Shown piece after piece: positions 17,288-25,723 of a DNA stretch of 43,821 nucleotides; position 1 is the first letter of the stretch; every line of letters starts with the position of its first letter. The DNA is from Lachnospiraceae bacterium (lineage in GTDB: Bacteria; Bacillota; Clostridia; Lachnospirales; Lachnospiraceae): positions 1 through 43,821 of the forward strand of contig JAQXNR010000034.1 in NCBI GenBank assembly GCA_029098105.1, read 5' to 3'. Made by a program: the position numbers and the translations under genes. Under the pieces are notes generated by a model, which saw only the letters and a list, made by a program, of their open reading frames with translations, was not told where the DNA came from and did no database searches.

Positions 17288-17434
17288 AAAGCCCTTGACA
17301 TCCCTTTTTATTGATATATTATATAGGAGGTTGCGCAACTCACCTGACATCTGGCGGTGTTGTAATTTTCGCAATCACCTGAATATATTTGTACTTTCAT
17401 TATTACATTACATCACGTTATGGAGGAAAATAAA

Positions 17435-18613
17435 ATGCCACAAGATACTCATTTGCAAACTATCCCCGTTGGAACCCTGCAGTTAGTAGCCATGGAAAGC
17501 TGCAAGGAATTAGGACAGAAGGTAGACAACTACCTGGTACAGTGGAGAAAAGAGCGTCAGAACGAGAACAAATCGACGGTCGCTTTTCACGGGTACGAGC
17601 GGGACACCTACCTGCTGAATGCCTCCTGCCCTCGCTTTGGTTCCGGTGAGGCAAAAGGCATCATCAAGGAATCCGTCCGCGGCGGGGATCTTTATATTCT
17701 GGTGGATGTAGGTAACTACAGCATTGAATACTCCCTTTGTGGACAAACAAACCACATGTCTCCGGATGACCACTATGCAGACTTAAAGCGTATTATTGCC
17801 GCCGCTGCCGGAAAACCGCGAAAGATTACTGTAATTATGCCTTTCCTGTATGAAAGCCGTCAGCACAAGCGCTCTACAAGAGAGTCTCTGGACTGTGCTA
17901 TTGCCCTGCAGGAACTTACTGCTATGGGTGTGGACAACATCATTACCTTTGATGCCCATGACCCCAGAGTGCAGAATGCCATTCCCCGGGAAGGTTTTGA
18001 GAGCATCATGCCCACTTACCAGTTTGTAAAAGCACTGTTGCGTTCTACCCCGGATTTAGATTTTGACAAAGACCACATGATGGTCATCAGCCCGGACGAA
18101 GGAGCGATGAACCGCGCCATTTACTTTGCCAGCGTTATTGGTGTAGATGTGGGAATGTTCTACAAACGCCGCGACTATACAAGGGTGGTAAATGGACGCA
18201 ATCCGATTGTGGCACATGAATTTCTGGGTGATTCCGTAGAGGGAAAAGACGTCATTATCATCGACGACATGATTTCCTCTGGCGAGAGCATGATGGATGT
18301 CGCAAAGGAATTAAAACGCAGAAAGGCAAAACGAGTATTTGCCATTTCCACCTTTGGATTATTTACCAATGGATTGGATGCCTTCGACAAATGTCACGAA
18401 GACGGCATTATTGAAAAAGTCATCACTACTAACCTTACCTACCAGACACCGGAATTATTACAGCGCGACTGGTATGTAAGTTCCGATTTAAGCAAATACA
18501 TTGCTTTAATCATTGACAACTTGAACCATGACGCTTCCATCAGCAATCTGTTAAGTCCCACCGAACGGATTCAGGCGCGCATTGAAGAATATAATAAAAA
18601 ACGTGGCAAATAA
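17435..18613 (+). CDS. prs: Ribose-phosphate pyrophosphokinase
   Basis: ITVIMPFLYESRQHKR, ITFDAHDPRVQNAIP, VISPDEGAMNRAIYFA, DVIIIDDMISSGESMMDVA. Start chosen at MPQDTH after GGAGG. Confidence 0.93.
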   Translation: MPQDTHLQTIPVGTLQLVAMESCKELGQKVDNYLVQWRKERQNENKSTVAFHGYERDTYLLNASCPRFGSGEAKGIIKESVRGGDLYILVDVGNYSIEYSLCGQTNHMSPDDHYADLKRIIAAAAGKPRKITVIMPFLYESRQHKRSTRESLDCAIALQELTAMGVDNIITFDAHDPRVQNAIPREGFESIMPTYQFVKALLRSTPDLDFDKDHMMVISPDEGAMNRAIYFASVIGVDVGMFYKRRDYTRVVNGRNPIVAHEFLGDSVEGKDVIIIDDMISSGESMMDVAKELKRRKAKRVFAISTFGLFTNGLDAFDKCHEDGIIEKVITTNLTYQTPELLQRDWYVSSDLSKYIALIIDNLNHDASISNLLSPTERIQARIEEYNKKRGK

Positions 18614-18635
18614 GCAGTTGTTACCGAGAATTTTC

Positions 18636-18671
18636 ACCGCACCAGTCAGACTTTGTCTGGTGCGGTTTTTA
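18636..18671 (+). terminator. Terminator downstream of prs
   Basis: ACCGCACCAG ... CTGGTGCGGT followed by TTTTTATAA. Confidence 0.9.
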
Positions 18672-18711
18672 TAACCATATATTCCTGTAATCAGGAAATG
18701 AGGGAAGGAGA

Positions 18712-21558
18712 ATGATTATGAAACAGCACTACAAAATAGTAGCAATGGCTCTCGCCATCCTGTTTACACTCTACACAGTGGCAAGTTCCCTGGAATGCAC
18801 CATCGCTACCACCAGTTCCACAGCAAACACCGCCTCCTATCGTTGGGATTCAGTAAATATTGGCGGTGGTGGCTTTGTCACTGGCGTGATTCCCACCTGT
18901 GAGGACAATATTTTTTATGCCCGTACAGATGTGGGAGGAGCATACCGTCTGGATACCACTACGGGAAAGTGGACCCCTTTGAGCAATGGATTGTCTCAGA
19001 AATACTACGGTGGTCTGGGAGTAGATTCCATTGCGGTAGACCCCAGCGACGCCAACAAAGTATATATTTTCTGTGGTTATACCTACACTTCTACAGAGCC
19101 CTCTCTGCTCATGCGCTCCACAGATGGCGGTGCCACTTTTACCTATATTGAACTGCCCTTTCAATCCTACGGAAACGGAACCGCGCGAAATGTAGGAGAA
19201 CGACTGGCAGTAGACCCCCTTTGCCCTACTACGCTGTACTGCGCCACCAGACAGCAAGGCGTCTATAAATCCACTGATTCCGGCAGCACCTGGACACAGA
19301 TTCGGGAGTATGACAGTTCCACAGGGAAAGTGGGTACCTGCATGGTTATGCTGGACAGCAGCCATCCCGTCAACGGCACTTCTTCCTTATACATTGCGGA
19401 CTGGAAACCCAGCAGCCAGTTTTACAAATACAGCGGCTCCGGCACCACTTGGCAAACTCTTTCCACTACGGTCTGTGACGGAGCTTACCCCCAGCGCTAT
19501 GCTATTTTTGATGGAAAGGCTTACATCACCTTTGCCAATACCGATTTTGAAAGCCGTCCCAGCGAAGGTTTTCTGGGAGTTCTGGACTTTTCCAACGATA
19601 CTTTTCAAAAGATTAACGTCTCCTATACAGACAGCACAAACGGCACAAAGAATTACCCTCTCAGCGGTATCAGCATCGACGCTTCCGGCAGTGGCAGAAT
19701 GATTGTATCCACGTTAAATACCTATGAGGATTTATACTGGAACGAAAATACTACCCAGCCTTACGGAGAGGACTGGGGAACTGCTGTCTTCACCTCAACC
19801 GATGGTGGCTCTACCTGGACAAATGTAAATAAAGCAGAACGGATTGTTTTAAAAACCGGAGGCAAGGATTGGGTATCCGATGAAAAACCTCACTGGTCTG
19901 GTGACGTTACCTTTTTACCCAATGACACTTCAAAAGCCATCCTCACCTCAGGAAACGGTACTTATATGCTCAGCAGTCTCTTTGATGATGACGGCAAAGT
20001 ATACGCCACTTTCTACACACAAGGCATGGAAGAAATCGTTCCTCTGGACCTGGTCGCACCCAAAGACGGAAACACCGTCCTCGCCAGCGTTGCTTATGAT
20101 GCCGGCGGTTTTTGCCACGAAGATATTACAACGGCTCCTTCGAAACGTCTTGGTACTTCTGTAAAAGATAGTGTCACCATAGGAACCAAAGGCGTCGCTA
20201 TCGACAAAACCGGAATTGCGGTCTGCGAAAATGACTCCAATCTTCTGGTTACCTGTGGCGAGACCGACACCACCAGTGGCACCAGCGTGTCGCCTCTGCA
20301 ATATTCCACCGACAACGGCACCACTTGGAAAGATGTTCCAGGCGCCTCCTCTTATGGGGAGCGGGGAAGTTGCGCGATTTCCGCCGATGGCTCTATAATA
20401 TACTGGCTTCCTACCGCTACAGCAGATCGTTATACCGAAAATGTAGGACAAACTTTGTATTGTTTCCCTTACGACAAAACTGCAGACACCTTTGGTAGTG
20501 TTTCCAGCCAGACGGTCAGTGGCTCCACTCTGTACGGGGCAAGAGTTATGACCGACACAGTAGACAACAACCTCGTCTATGTCTCTTCCCAGGAGGGATT
20601 GTACTACAGTTTGAATCAAGGCAGTTCTTTTAACAAAATTACCTCCAGCGATACCAGCCGGGTAAACCGTATGACCGTAGTTCCCGGAGTCCGGGGATTG
20701 GTCTATGAAGCAAACGGACAATGGAGTGACCAATCACTCTCCTACTATGATATTGAAACGGGCACGAATACACTAATCGATGCAGTCGGAAACTGCGAAG
20801 CAGTCGGCTTTGGCAAGGCAGCCTCCGGATGCTCTTTCCCTGCTATGTATGTTTGGGGAACCATCTCCGGTGTCACCGGACTGTTCCGCTCCACAGATGC
20901 AGGCACAAGTTGGGTTAGAATCAACGATTCCAGCACCCAGTTTGGTGGTGTTGGTAATGGCAAAATGCTGTTGGGTGACCGTCGTGTATTCGGCAGAGTG
21001 TATATGACCACATATGGTCAGGGCATTGTATACGGAGATAGCCAGGAGACTGGTTCTGAAACTTCTGAGGCTTCTACGACCAGCAATCAGAGCAGTCAGG
21101 ACAATTCCTCTGCCACTACCACCAGTAGTCAGAGCAGTTCTCAAGCACCTGCCACTACTACCAGCAGCCAGAGCAGTTCTCAATCCTCTGCTACTTCCAC
21201 TAGCAGCCAGAATGACAAAAATACACCGAGCAGTTCAGAAGTTTCTGCTACTTCCACAACAGCAGTTTCCTCTACCGCCAAAAAGCTGGCAGCACCGACA
21301 AAATTAAAAGGAAGTTCCAAAAAGAAAGGCAAAGTAACCCTTTCCTGGAAAAAAGTGAAAAATGCAAAAAAATATAAAATTTATTACAGCAAAAAGAAAA
21401 AGGGCCCTTATAAAGCCCTTGTAAGTACCTCAAAAATAAAAGTGACATTTTCGAAAAAGATGGTGTCCGGAAAAGTATTTTACTTTAAGGTCACTGCTGT
21501 AGACAAAAACGGAAATGCTGGAAAATATTCCACCGTAAAACGAATCAAAGTAAAATAA
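18712..21558 (+). CDS. Secreted GH74-family (xyloglucanase-like) protein with Ser/Thr/Gln linker and C-terminal Lys-rich FN3-like domain
   Basis: Signal peptide. GH74-type motifs: YARTDVGGAYRLD, LAVDPLCPTTLYCATRQQGVYKSTDSGSTWTQI. Repeated SSQSSSQ linker, then PTKLKGSSKKKGKVTLSWKKVKNAKKYKIYYSKKKKGPYKAL. Confidence 0.87.
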   Translation: MIMKQHYKIVAMALAILFTLYTVASSLECTIATTSSTANTASYRWDSVNIGGGGFVTGVIPTCEDNIFYARTDVGGAYRLDTTTGKWTPLSNGLSQKYYGGLGVDSIAVDPSDANKVYIFCGYTYTSTEPSLLMRSTDGGATFTYIELPFQSYGNGTARNVGERLAVDPLCPTTLYCATRQQGVYKSTDSGSTWTQIREYDSSTGKVGTCMVMLDSSHPVNGTSSLYIADWKPSSQFYKYSGSGTTWQTLSTTVCDGAYPQRYAIFDGKAYITFANTDFESRPSEGFLGVLDFSNDTFQKINVSYTDSTNGTKNYPLSGISIDASGSGRMIVSTLNTYEDLYWNENTTQPYGEDWGTAVFTSTDGGSTWTNVNKAERIVLKTGGKDWVSDEKPHWSGDVTFLPNDTSKAILTSGNGTYMLSSLFDDDGKVYATFYTQGMEEIVPLDLVAPKDGNTVLASVAYDAGGFCHEDITTAPSKRLGTSVKDSVTIGTKGVAIDKTGIAVCENDSNLLVTCGETDTTSGTSVSPLQYSTDNGTTWKDVPGASSYGERGSCAISADGSIIYWLPTATADRYTENVGQTLYCFPYDKTADTFGSVSSQTVSGSTLYGARVMTDTVDNNLVYVSSQEGLYYSLNQGSSFNKITSSDTSRVNRMTVVPGVRGLVYEANGQWSDQSLSYYDIETGTNTLIDAVGNCEAVGFGKAASGCSFPAMYVWGTISGVTGLFRSTDAGTSWVRINDSSTQFGGVGNGKMLLGDRRVFGRVYMTTYGQGIVYGDSQETGSETSEASTTSNQSSQDNSSATTTSSQSSSQAPATTTSSQSSSQSSATSTSSQNDKNTPSSSEVSATSTTAVSSTAKKLAAPTKLKGSSKKKGKVTLSWKKVKNAKKYKIYYSKKKKGPYKALVSTSKIKVTFSKKMVSGKVFYFKVTAVDKNGNAGKYSTVKRIKVK

Positions 21559-21577
21559 TAAATAGAACTACTATGTT

Positions 21578-22681
21578 TTATTTATTTCGTGGAGTATCAT
21601 ACTCTGTTTTTGTAATTATAGTTGAACTGGCATCCTCTGTTTCATATGTTGTTATATTGCTGTTTTTAGGAATGTTATACTCTGTTTTTGTAATTGTGTC
21701 ATAGGGATTGGTTGCTGTCATATCCTGACACTCGGTTGTTACGTCTTTTAACGTACTGGCACCGACTGTTGACGCCATAGCACCCTTACTTTCAAATTTT
21801 AAATGCCCTATGATGCAAACAGCAACAATGAGACATAAAATAACATTTCTAATTACAGCATTTTTCTTTTTATTCATCATTATATTCCTCATCCTCCTTT
21901 TGATTATATTAAAATTTCTGCCCATTGCAGACATGAAATGGGCAGATTTTTTATTAACTGTAGGTATTGAAAGCAGCGTATCTAAATATATATTTCTTTT
22001 ATCTTCTCCCATATATTGAATGGCAATATTGTCACAGGATAATTCGCAATCCTCATCCATTACACAAAACAGTATCCAACACAGAGGATTAAACCAGTAC
22101 ACGCAGCAAACTATAAAGGCTAATATTTTCCACAAACAATCATTACGTTGACTATGAACCATTTCATGTAATAGTATACATTCCAAATATTGTTTGTCCA
22201 CCATGCAGGAATGTGGAATTATAATCTTCTTACGAAAAACTCCAAAACTGAAGGGCTGAGAGAGTCTTGAAGTAACAACAATTTGAAATTTTTTACTTTT
22301 ATAATAGTTACTCAACACTCTACGACATTGCTCAACTTCATTCGGTATGATAGATTGCTCTAACTTTCTCAATTCCATACAAGTCATTATATAATTGAAA
22401 ATCCCCCCTAAAAGAAGTAAAACCATAATTAAAAAATATCCTATATTGATATAACCCACTTGCCTATTTTTCAGTAAAACAGCACCCCGCTCGCTAGTAT
22501 AGCATAAGAAATGGCAAGAAATTGGAATTATTATTGGAAAAAACTGAATGACAATAAATTTCCATAGATTGTATATCAACTCTCTTGAAATATACTTCAT
22601 AAAAAAAGTACGACAAAAAAGTATAAACATAATAGCAACACTTGAAGTAATTATTAACATAAAATTAATTGTCACTATCAC
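21578..22681 (-). CDS. M56 family BlaR1/MecR1-like membrane metallopeptidase lacking a penicillin-binding sensor domain
   Basis: Multiple TM helices. HEMVHSQRNDCLWK (HExxH), CELSCDNIAI, and a short C-terminal tail after the last TM. Confidence 0.85.
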   Translation of the reverse strand: MIVTINFMLIITSSVAIMFILFCRTFFMKYISRELIYNLWKFIVIQFFPIIIPISCHFLCYTSERGAVLLKNRQVGYINIGYFLIMVLLLLGGIFNYIMTCMELRKLEQSIIPNEVEQCRRVLSNYYKSKKFQIVVTSRLSQPFSFGVFRKKIIIPHSCMVDKQYLECILLHEMVHSQRNDCLWKILAFIVCCVYWFNPLCWILFCVMDEDCELSCDNIAIQYMGEDKRNIYLDTLLSIPTVNKKSAHFMSAMGRNFNIIKRRMRNIMMNKKKNAVIRNVILCLIVAVCIIGHLKFESKGAMASTVGASTLKDVTTECQDMTATNPYDTITKTEYNIPKNSNITTYETEDASSTIITKTEYDTPRNK

Positions 22682-23039
22682 AATCCTCCTTCAAGTCCTG
22701 AACTAACTTACTCAATTCATTTATTTCATCCGAATTCAAATCTCTGCTTTTTAAAAAATAGGAAACAAACAAAGAAAGAGAGCCACCAAATTGTTGCTCT
22801 ACAATTTCATTTGCATTTGCACACTTTACATCTTGTTTTGAAATTAACGGTTTACACTGAAAATGTGGCTCAATGCGTTCAATAAATCCCTTCTTTATAC
22901 AACGATTGATTATTGTATAAGTAGTATTCCTGCTCCATCCTATTTTTTCTTTTAAAATTTTTGAAATAGCACCAGCAGTCAAATCTCCATTATCCCAAAG
23001 CACTTCCAAAACATTCCATTCTGATTGATGAACTTTCAT
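22665..23039 (-). CDS. BlaI/MecI-type transcriptional repressor
   Basis: MKVHQSEWNVLEVLWDNGDLTAGAISKILKEKIGWSRNTTYTIINRCIKKGFIER. Start placed at 23039 because the longer track start (23138) would run through the promoter and operator. Confidence 0.9.
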   Translation of the reverse strand: MKVHQSEWNVLEVLWDNGDLTAGAISKILKEKIGWSRNTTYTIINRCIKKGFIERIEPHFQCKPLISKQDVKCANANEIVEQQFGGSLSLFVSYFLKSRDLNSDEINELSKLVQDLKEDCDSDN

Positions 23040-23088
23040 TTGATTAAACATCCTTTCTATAATCGAACATCTCTGCTCAATTGATTCT

Positions 23089-23102
23089 ACTACAGTTGTA
23101 GT
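23089..23102. promoter_or_regulatory. BlaI-type operator 1, at the blaI promoter start-site region
   Basis: ACTACA-GT-TGTAGT, matching a TACAnnTGTA core. Adjacent to the minus-strand -10 box. Confidence 0.85.
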
Positions 23103-23109
23103 CAAATCA

Positions 23110-23138
23110 ATAATATCATACTTTATATAACAATTCAA
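23110..23138 (-). promoter_or_regulatory. Promoter for the blaI-blaR1-like operon
   Basis: Minus strand TTGAAT (23138-23133), 17-nt spacer, TATTAT (23115-23110). Confidence 0.75.
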
Positions 23139-23152
23139 GAATATATTTACTA

Positions 23153-23181
23153 TTGACAGTATCGATTGATAATGATAAAAT
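23153..23181 (+). promoter_or_regulatory. Divergent promoter for the 54-aa ORF
   Basis: TTGACA (23153-23158), 17-nt spacer, TAAAAT (23176-23181). Confidence 0.85.
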
Positions 23182-23184
23182 ACG

Positions 23185-23198
23185 ACTACAGTTGTAGT
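23185..23198. promoter_or_regulatory. BlaI-type operator 2, at the divergent sORF promoter start-site region
   Basis: ACTACAGTTGTAGT, identical to operator 1, beginning 3 nt past the -10 box. Confidence 0.85.
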
Positions 23199-23221
23199 AA
23201 TATTTTGAAAGGTGGTCTTTT

Positions 23222-23386
23222 ATGAAAACAACCGAAAAAACTCTAATCTCTCAACAAGACTGTGATGGATTTACCATTAGCAAATATGCCATATCCGATA
23301 ATTCTAATTTAAGTAGGACAACAACTAAGTTTAAAGATTTTGAATTTAGAATAACAAAAGATAATGTCTTTTGCTTTGCCTTTTGA
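23222..23386 (+). CDS. Small 54-aa protein under predicted BlaI-type control, function unknown
   Basis: ATG after AAAGGTGG. Translation: MKTTEKTLISQQDCDGFTISKYAISDNSNLSRTTTKFKDFEFRITKDNVFCFAF. It has its own promoter, operator and a nearby terminator. Below the 60-aa cutoff of the supplied track. Confidence 0.7.
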   Translation: MKTTEKTLISQQDCDGFTISKYAISDNSNLSRTTTKFKDFEFRITKDNVFCFAF

Positions 23387-23399
23387 TACCCTCAACGAA

Positions 23400-23432
23400 G
23401 AAGCGTCATATTATAATTTGATGCCTCTTTTC
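23400..23432 (+). terminator. Probable terminator downstream of the 54-aa ORF
   Basis: GAAGCGTCA-TATTATAATT-TGATGCCTC (one mismatch, one GU) followed by TTTTCC. Confidence 0.5.
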
Positions 23433-23447
23433 CTTACTATAAAAAAC

Positions 23448-23484
23448 AAAAATACCAGTACTACATAATGTACTGGTATTTTTG
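23448..23484. terminator. Bidirectional terminator between the sORF and the convergent PBP gene
   Basis: AAAAATACCAGTAC-TACATAAT-GTACTGGTATTTTT. Confidence 0.85.
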
Positions 23485-23494
23485 CATACTTCTA

Positions 23495-25723
23495 CTACTG
23501 TACCGTAGTCTCTGTAACTGGTGCCTGAGTTGCCGGTGCCTCCGTTACTGGTTCCTGGGTTGCCGGTGCCTCTGTTACCGGGGCTTCTGTTACTGGCGCT
23601 TCGGTAACAAGCGGTGCCTCTGTTGCAACCGGAGTCTCCGTATCGGCTTCCGTAGTTACCTCTTCGGTAACCTTCTCCGTCGTCTTCTCTTCTGTCGTTC
23701 CATCGTTTTCTTCAGTGGAGTCTTTCTTCTTACCATTGACTGTGTATTTTTCCCAATCCTGAGGTGCCAGTCCCTGATGTATCTGTTCCATGTAAATCTT
23801 CCAGATTTTACCCGGATAAGTTCCTCCAAACAATCCTGTAAGCCGCTGTGGTGTATCGTATCCTACCCATACCGAAGTAGTATAATACTTGGAAAATCCA
23901 CAGAACCAGCCATCCTTATTATCATCTGTCGTTCCTGTTTTACCCGCACAAGGCATATTTCCACTTAAAGCCAGACCGGCTCCGGTTCCGTATTTCAATA
24001 CCCCCTTCATGACATCCACCATCATCAGGTCGGCATTTTCTTCATAAATTTGTGTTTCCTCTACCTCATCCGAAACAATAATCTCCCCGTCAGAATCAGT
24101 AATGGAAACAATACAAGTAGGCTCCCGATACACACCATTATTCGCCAGCGTTGCATAGCCGGATGCCATTTCTTTCGTATTGGTTCCATAAGTGAGACCA
24201 CCTACAGATGCCGCCAATACATAATCGGAACTTACAATATTAGAATAATGCATGGATTTTAGGTAACTCAATCCTACCTGAGGGGTCAACTCTTTAAACA
24301 AACGCCATGCTACTACGTTTCTCGATTTTTCCACCGCTTTACGCAATGTAATCCGCCCCATATACACTCCATCGGAATTCTTCGGAGCATCTTTTTCATC
24401 TAGTTTCGTATCAGAAACAATGGAATCCGGAGTATATCCCCGCTCCAATGCCGGAGCATATACAATTAGCGGCTTAATCGAACTACCCGGCTGCCGGTAA
24501 CTCTGAAAAGCTCGATTTAAAGAATATCCTTCCACATCGTCCTGACTTCTTCCACCTACAATTGCCACAACCCGTCCACTGCTGTTGTCAATACAGGTAG
24601 CAGATGCCTGCAACTTATACATTTTTGTTTCCTCATCTACATCCGTATAATTAGTCAGAGTATCATCCACTGCAGCCTGCAACATTTTCTGCTTTTCCTG
24701 GTCAATTGAGGTATAAATACGGTAACCACCTGTATACAATGTGGCCTCACACTGGTCATAGGCAGTATTGTATTCCTTATCATACCTTTTTTTATCCTCA
24801 TCCGAATCAAAACTGTAACGGAATTCAAACCCTTGCTTTTTCATCAATGCTTTCGTGGCGCTGTCCATAACAAAAGAATCCACACTACTGATTTTAGTTT
24901 TTTTCGGTTTCTTTACTTTTATTTTTTCATTTATTGCTTCCTCGTACTGCTCCTCTGTAATCGCACCATCTTCCTTCATCTCTTTCAGAATCAAATCCCG
25001 CCGTTTCAGAGTATCCTCTTTATGCTGATAGGGGTCATACATGGAAGGACCATTCGGAATTGCGCATAAAAACGCAATTTGGGACAAACTCAGGGAACTC
25101 ACACTCTTGCGGAAATATCCATTGGCTGCCGCTTGAATTCCATAATATCCATTACCAAAATAAATATTGTTAATATAATACTCCAGAATCTGGTCTTTTC
25201 CATATTTCTTTTCCAGTCCAATGGAAATGAAAACCTCTTTAATCTTACGGGTATATGTGACGTCATTATTCAAATAAACACTTCTAGCCAACTGCTGCGT
25301 AATCGTAGAACCACCCTGGGAAATGCCCCCCGCCTTCAGATTCACCAGAAGAGAACCGGCAATACGCTTCACATCAATACCATTATGCTGGTAAAACTTC
25401 TTGTCCTCAATACAAATCAAGGCATTCTTTACATCTTCTGGAATGCTGGAGAAATCCAGGTAATATAAATCCTTTTCTCCTTTCAGCGTCTTCATCAAAT
25501 CGCCGCTTCCGTCATATACAAGACTTGTCTCCGTCGCCTTAAAATCCTTCTCAGAGGACTCTTCTACAATCTTCTGCGCAGTAGAGTACAGCGTCAGCAC
25601 AGTCTTTCCATATTTCATGTAAATGCCTACAGCAACAATCATGCAGGCCATGAACACAACAATAAAAAAGCTCTGGAATACTCTTGTTAAAAGCCAGAAC
25701 TTTTTCTTTTTTTTCTTAGTCAT
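23495..25723 (-). CDS. Class A penicillin-binding protein (glycosyltransferase + transpeptidase), Thr/Pro/Glu-rich repeat tail
   Basis: GT51 motifs (IEDKKFYQHNGIDVKRI, GGSTITQQLARSVYL, KYGKDQILEYYINNIYFGNG). Transpeptidase SxxK (QPGSSIKPL) and KTG (AGKTGTTDD). Tail with TEAPVTEAPATQEPVTEAP repeats. Confidence 0.95.
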   Translation of the reverse strand: MTKKKKKKFWLLTRVFQSFFIVVFMACMIVAVGIYMKYGKTVLTLYSTAQKIVEESSEKDFKATETSLVYDGSGDLMKTLKGEKDLYYLDFSSIPEDVKNALICIEDKKFYQHNGIDVKRIAGSLLVNLKAGGISQGGSTITQQLARSVYLNNDVTYTRKIKEVFISIGLEKKYGKDQILEYYINNIYFGNGYYGIQAAANGYFRKSVSSLSLSQIAFLCAIPNGPSMYDPYQHKEDTLKRRDLILKEMKEDGAITEEQYEEAINEKIKVKKPKKTKISSVDSFVMDSATKALMKKQGFEFRYSFDSDEDKKRYDKEYNTAYDQCEATLYTGGYRIYTSIDQEKQKMLQAAVDDTLTNYTDVDEETKMYKLQASATCIDNSSGRVVAIVGGRSQDDVEGYSLNRAFQSYRQPGSSIKPLIVYAPALERGYTPDSIVSDTKLDEKDAPKNSDGVYMGRITLRKAVEKSRNVVAWRLFKELTPQVGLSYLKSMHYSNIVSSDYVLAASVGGLTYGTNTKEMASGYATLANNGVYREPTCIVSITDSDGEIIVSDEVEETQIYEENADLMMVDVMKGVLKYGTGAGLALSGNMPCAGKTGTTDDNKDGWFCGFSKYYTTSVWVGYDTPQRLTGLFGGTYPGKIWKIYMEQIHQGLAPQDWEKYTVNGKKKDSTEENDGTTEEKTTEKVTEEVTTEADTETPVATEAPLVTEAPVTEAPVTEAPATQEPVTEAPATQAPVTETTVQ

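What the first reader, a model, noticed from the sequence alone, without database searches (positions are those of the whole stretch)
23039..23432. Unlisted 54-aa gene divergent from a BlaI-type repressor, with an identical operator on each promoter
Seen directly: TTGACA-17-TAAAAT, operator ACTACAGTTGTAGT 3 nt past the -10 box, SD AAAGGTGG, a 54-codon ORF (MKTTEKTLISQQDCDGFTISKYAISDNSNLSRTTTKFKDFEFRITKDNVFCFAF) and a hairpin with T-run. On the other strand TTGAAT-17-TATTAT has the same 14-mer at its start site and drives blaI and the M56 gene. Established: BlaI/MecI repressors bind TACAnnTGTA-type palindromes and are released by cleavage through M56 sensors. Inference: the small protein is the only non-autoregulatory output in this locus, so it should be the effector. 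It has no obvious TM or signal peptide and no family I recognise; it could be a peptide effector, RiPP-like precursor or regulator.
Basis: partly seen in the sequence, partly recalled or inferred. Interest (0 to 1): 0.78.

Follow-up and report, generated by a model that had tools for sequence, protein, structure and literature searches.

The report
Orphan small gene under BlaI-type control
A gut-bacterium genome carries a small cassette in which a penicillinase-type repressor and its membrane protease control, besides themselves, only one strongly promoted 54-residue protein that resembles nothing searched here; the control system is of a known kind, the protein's job is unknown.

Summary
In detail: two near-identical operators, two promoters, a ribosome site, a 54-codon ORF and a hairpin lie where stated. 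Comparing 30 blaI promoters shows independently that this repressor clade uses the 14-mer ACTA-N6-TAGT (15 of 30 promoters, 0.25 expected); both window sites fit. In the 84%-complete genome no other such site sits in a clear promoter, so the 54-aa ORF is the only non-autoregulatory target found. It has a near-consensus promoter, gene-like codon choice and its own terminator, so it is probably expressed. It has no relative in any collection searched. The M56 partner keeps its catalytic residues but has no penicillin-sensing domain. Precedents exist: a Clostridium thermocellum BlaI regulon also includes its own operon plus a hypothetical protein, and two relatives here have secreted proteins with tandem operators beside M56. 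New variant of a known kind; 'effector' remains inference.

The parts
23222..23386 (+). 54-aa orphan ORF
   Evidence: SD, codon usage, no family match
23208..23215 (+). ribosome binding site AAAGGTGG
   Evidence: sequence
23153..23181 (+). promoter TTGACA-17-TAAAAT, extended -10
   Evidence: 11 of 12 matches
23185..23198 (+). BlaI operator over the ORF start site
   Evidence: ACTA-N6-TAGT clade motif
23089..23102 (-). BlaI operator over the blaI start site
   Evidence: ACTA-N6-TAGT clade motif
23110..23138 (-). blaI promoter TTGAAT-17-TATTAT
   Evidence: 9 of 12 matches, extended -10
22665..23039 (-). blaI, 124-aa Penicillinase_R repressor
   Evidence: PF03965 1.3e-22
21578..22681 (-). M56 metalloprotease gene, 367 aa, no sensor domain
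   Evidence: PF05569 1e-34; HEMVH and ELSCD
23397..23430 (+). terminator-like hairpin after the ORF
   Evidence: -11 kcal/mol, z -4.1
23447..23484 (.). strong bidirectional terminator between the ORF and the PBP gene
   Evidence: 15-bp perfect inverted repeat, -21 kcal/mol
18614..23494 (.). stretch absent at this place in three congeners (BNR protein, M56, blaI, ORF)
   Evidence: flanking genes adjacent in G300, G301, G302

Best explanation
A recently acquired BlaI/M56 divergon. Shown: repressor gene blaI and its M56 protease gene lie in one operon arrangement, and a 54-codon gene faces away from it; each promoter carries one BlaI operator of the clade type ACTA-N6-TAGT over its start site. 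Inferred: a BlaI dimer sits on each operator and keeps both transcripts off; an envelope signal felt by the membrane part or the short (about 75 aa) outer tail of the M56 protein makes its cytosolic zinc protease cut BlaI (aligned site Tyr94-Phe95); both promoters then open, and the strong extended -10 promoter yields a burst of a small, soluble, probably beta-rich cytosolic protein that is the output. Its biochemical action is not known; I think a protein that binds and modulates another protein is likelier than a secreted peptide.
For: Clade operator found by comparing relatives: 15 of 30 blaI promoters, 28 sites, 0.25 expected (the counts include the window locus itself). Both window sites fit it. 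C. thermocellum BlaI_1845 binds GACTAT half-sites, and BlaI_0696 controls its own operon plus a hypothetical protein (PMC8457756). Promoter 11/12. Coding signal. Terminators. M56 has HEMVH, ELSCD and the equivalents of Asp210 and Tyr261 of BlaR1. BlaI P1' Phe kept. Only clear promoter sites in the genome. Two relatives have secreted-protein genes next to M56 with tandem operators.
Against: No homologue of the 54-aa protein, so no selection test. Relatives carry tandem operators mostly 23-31 bp apart in one promoter, and C. thermocellum seems to need two pairs per promoter; here there is one operator per promoter, 96 bp apart. No relative has a divergent small ORF with an operator. The Phe of the BlaR1 self-cleavage site is not at the aligned place in this M56 (SAMGR against SFNGK). 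The structure model rests on a single sequence, with five models ranging from pLDDT 50 to 78.
Confidence: 0.55

Rival explanations
1. The ORF is a chance or decaying reading frame: the cassette lost its real output gene (for example a beta-lactamase or a secreted protein) on insertion, and the promoter with its operator is left over, or mainly serves cooperative repression of blaI.
For: No homologue in genus, family, order or class samples, GTDB species contigs, viral contigs, plasmids or phages. The cassette is foreign by composition and absent at this place in congeners. A 54-codon run at this base composition has about 1% chance, which is not negligible.
Against: Good SD at correct spacing, codon choice better than 400 of 400 shuffles, terminator directly after the stop codon.
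Confidence: 0.22
2. The output is the roughly 240-nt transcript itself, a BlaI-controlled regulatory RNA.
For: Short monocistronic unit, strong promoter and two terminators; mild folding excess, z -1.77.
Against: No Rfam family at gathering score, only weak sub-threshold hits; coding signal and SD present.
Confidence: 0.1
3. The 54-aa protein feeds back on the switch itself (anti-repressor or M56 modulator, in the manner of MecR2 or CopZ, both recalled from general knowledge) rather than acting as an end effector.
For: It is co-controlled with blaI and M56 and is the only other gene of the regulon found.
Against: No CxxC as in CopZ; no Pfam, NCBIfam or PDB match.
Confidence: 0.08
4. It is a precursor of a secreted or modified peptide (RiPP-like or signalling) that the outer tail of M56 may sense.
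For: Two Cys, one near the C-terminus (NVFCFAF); small size.
Against: By eye no signal peptide and no double-glycine leader; no modification or export gene recognised in the inserted stretch.
Confidence: 0.05

Closest known systems
Staphylococcal bla and mec divergons (BlaI/BlaR1/BlaZ, MecI/MecR1/MecA)
   Same: Repressor and M56 genes in one operon, a divergent output gene, inverted-repeat operators at the divergent promoters; BlaI aligns to MecI and BlaI structures, M56 to BlaR1.
   Different: M56 lacks the penicillin-binding sensor; the output is a 54-aa orphan, not a beta-lactamase or PBP2a; gene order is blaI then M56; operator outer arms are ACTA/TAGT.
[quoted passage not shown]
   Same: Clostridial BlaI, GACTAT-type half-sites, tiny regulons; BlaI_0696 controls its own operon plus a hypothetical protein.
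   Different: Two inverted-repeat pairs per promoter there, one per promoter here; the hypothetical protein was not compared with this ORF.
blaI/M56 operons of the same bacterial family with tandem ACTA-N6-TAGT operators (L134, L135)
   Same: Same 14-mer operator; a second operator-bearing promoter next to M56.
   Different: Outputs there are a 753-aa lipoprotein (SBP_bac_1) and a 181-aa secreted protein downstream of M56, not a divergent small ORF.
CopY/CopZ copper regulons
   Same: BlaI-fold repressor (TIGR02698 hit 3.8e-14, below its cut-off); a small co-regulated protein.
   Different: No metal-binding CxxC in the ORF; an M56 partner is present.

Membership tests
BlaI/MecI (Penicillinase_R) repressors | Winged helix plus dimerisation domain matching PF03965 | tested here: met
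   1.3e-22, 80.7 bits against cut-off 22.6, residues 5-114
BlaI/MecI (Penicillinase_R) repressors | Inverted-repeat operator at own promoter | tested here: met
   ACTA-N6-TAGT at 23089-23102; clade footprint 15 of 30 promoters; binding itself not tested
BlaI/MecI (Penicillinase_R) repressors | Proteolytic site Asn101-Phe102 | tested here: inconclusive
   Aligned residues are Tyr94-Phe95: P1' Phe kept, P1 not; cleavage itself not testable
BlaR1/MecR1 signal transducers | M56 gluzincin motifs HExxH and ExxxD, Asp210, Tyr261 | tested here: met
   HEMVH, ELSCD, aligned Asp and Tyr
BlaR1/MecR1 signal transducers | Extracellular penicillin-binding sensor domain | tested here: not met
   367 aa, only Peptidase_M56 found, alignment to BlaR1 ends at the last TM
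BlaR1/MecR1 signal transducers | Self-cleavage at Ser283-Phe284 | tested here: inconclusive
   Aligned as Ser-Ala; the loop alignment contains a gap
Any known family for the 54-aa protein | Match to Pfam, NCBIfam, PHROGs, a PDB sequence or a known fold | tested here: not met
RiPP precursor | Adjacent modification or export genes, leader motif | tested here: not met
   None recognised in the inserted stretch; rest of the genome not screened

The most novel reading that the evidence does not exclude
A BlaI/M56 switch without a beta-lactam sensor whose dedicated output is a new small, beta-rich intracellular protein that acts in an envelope-stress or antibiotic response by a mechanism not yet described, carried as a three-gene cassette gained by a single species.
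Probability: 0.2. Interest if true: 0.65.

Novelty: new variant of a known kind. Interest (0 to 1): 0.38.

Why it matters
Many clostridial M56 proteins are paired with BlaI repressors whose signals and outputs are unknown. Here the regulon found is only the switch itself plus one 54-residue protein, so the question of what the switch does reduces to the function of a single small gene. The clade operator ACTA-N6-TAGT found here also gives a simple way to look for the outputs of other such systems.

Tried and rejected
Homologue searches of the 54-aa ORF in own genus, 299 family genomes, 392 class genomes, GTDB contigs, viral contigs, plasmids and phages: nothing beyond chance-level hits. Spaced double-operator search in 299 genera: two other genomes matched, neither at a blaI. 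Small divergent ORFs at 30 related blaI genes: none recurrent, none with an operator. Further operator-like sites in relatives G076, G264 (C78) and G152 (C33) lie in terminator-like hairpins, two of the places next to small holin-like ORFs, so rejected as operators. Three extra clade-pattern sites in the own genome are intragenic or at a start codon, rejected. RNA-family explanation rejected. Fold search: no PDB or BFVD match at E<=0.001. Similarity of ORF residues 3-43 to residues 245-282 of the neighbouring BNR protein (41%) was reached by 3 of 200 shuffles and is treated as chance. Terminal repeats of a mobile element around the cassette: none convincing. Source of the cassette on plasmids or in viral contigs: none.

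Full report
Observation. The promoter facing the ORF is the best match in the region (11 of 12, extended -10), the operator 23185-23198 begins three bases after it, and the ribosome site AAAGGTGG stands six bases before the ATG. On the other strand the blaI promoter (9 of 12, extended -10) has the same 14-mer seven bases past its -10. Two hairpins follow the ORF: 23397-23430 (-11 kcal/mol) and a perfect 15-bp one at 23447-23484 (-21 kcal/mol) that can also serve the convergent penicillin-binding-protein gene.

Is the ORF a gene? Shuffling its bases gives a 53-codon stop-free run in about 1% of cases; with stops excluded, none of 400 shuffles fits the codon usage of blaI+M56 as well, and the true frame scores better than the five others. 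The positional base model alone is weaker (9% of shuffles reach it). I take it as probably coding, not proven.

Relatives. The 54-aa protein has no Pfam, NCBIfam, PHROGs or significant PDB match and no relative in the sampled genus, family, order and class genomes, GTDB contigs, viral contigs, plasmids or phages. The M56 protein is also isolated, with best matches around 36% identity, and BlaI reaches 51%.

History. GC falls from 45-50% to about 30% over 21.5-23.45 kb. In three congeners (G300, G301, G302) the gene left of the inserted stretch (window 17420-18613) is followed directly by the PBP gene (window 23495-25723); in a fourth (G299) only the PBP matched in the fetched stretch. The 948-aa BNR-repeat protein, M56, blaI and the ORF are absent from that place. 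Both flanks are native to the genus, which argues against a chimeric contig. The BNR gene is about 50% GC, so the 4.9-kb stretch may be two separate gains.

Operator. Upstream regions (250 bp) of 30 blaI genes (the window's plus relatives at 42-51% identity) contain ACTA-N6-TAGT in 15 cases, 28 sites, against 0.25 in shuffles. The window sites fit. In Clostridium thermocellum, DAP-seq and EMSA gave GACTAT and GTCTAT half-sites for two BlaI proteins, with regulons of one and three operons, one of the targets being a hypothetical protein that the authors suspect to be the response gene (PMC8457756). That is the closest published precedent found. In the own genome (84% complete) only the two window sites lie clearly in promoters: the search with one mismatch gave one further site, which falls inside a predicted ORF, and the wider clade pattern gave three more, two inside predicted ORFs and one at the start codon of an aspartate-kinase-like gene. 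In relatives, operators mostly come as tandem pairs 23-31 bp apart; in G264 and G283 such pairs also precede a lipoprotein gene (SBP_bac_1) and a secreted 181-aa protein gene next to M56. The window differs: one operator per promoter, 96 bp apart, and a divergent small ORF.

M56. All catalytic positions named for BlaR1 (H201ExxH, E242xxxD, Asp210, Tyr261; PMC9834060) are kept. There is no sensor domain; about 75 residues follow the last membrane helix, with a repeated TKTEY motif (27-nt direct repeat). The Phe of the self-cleavage site is not at the aligned position, whereas most relatives have one; in BlaR1 the F284A change still allowed reduced BlaI cleavage. In BlaI the aligned cleavage pair is Tyr94-Phe95 in place of Asn101-Phe102.

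Structure. AlphaFold2 on the single sequence gives an all-beta model, mean pLDDT 78 in the best of five models and 50-62 in the others, without a fold match. This is a hint only.

Verdict. BlaI control is well supported by sequence; expression of the ORF is probable; an effector role is plausible by analogy and by elimination; the mechanism is unknown. New variant of a known kind.

Noticed in passing
window 18712-21558 (+): 948-aa BNR/Asp-box secreted protein (weak Sortilin-Vps10 and GH85_C hits) in the same insertion, absent from that place in congeners.
   Followed up: partly
L132, L133 (and the L136 hairpin): Small membrane ORFs (MYVTYSDLIQVGIFICALVGLCYTIFKGKGK type, holin-like) whose neighbouring terminator-like hairpins contain ACTATTGCAGTAGT-like 14-mers, false positives for BlaI operator scans.
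   Followed up: partly
L134:2-2260(-) and L135:1818-2363(-): Lipoprotein and secreted 181-aa protein genes next to M56 with tandem ACTA-N6-TAGT operators, likely outputs of related systems.
   Followed up: partly
window 21591-21695: 27-nt direct repeat in the M56 tail, coding TKTEYNIPKN / TKTEYDTPRN.
   Followed up: no
window 21907-21956: 23-nt inverted repeat inside the M56 reading frame, terminator-like on the minus strand.
   Followed up: no
L037-L065 and L080-L107: The M56 self-cleavage Phe (AFGE, NFSK) is widely conserved in relatives but not at the aligned position in the window protein.
   Followed up: partly
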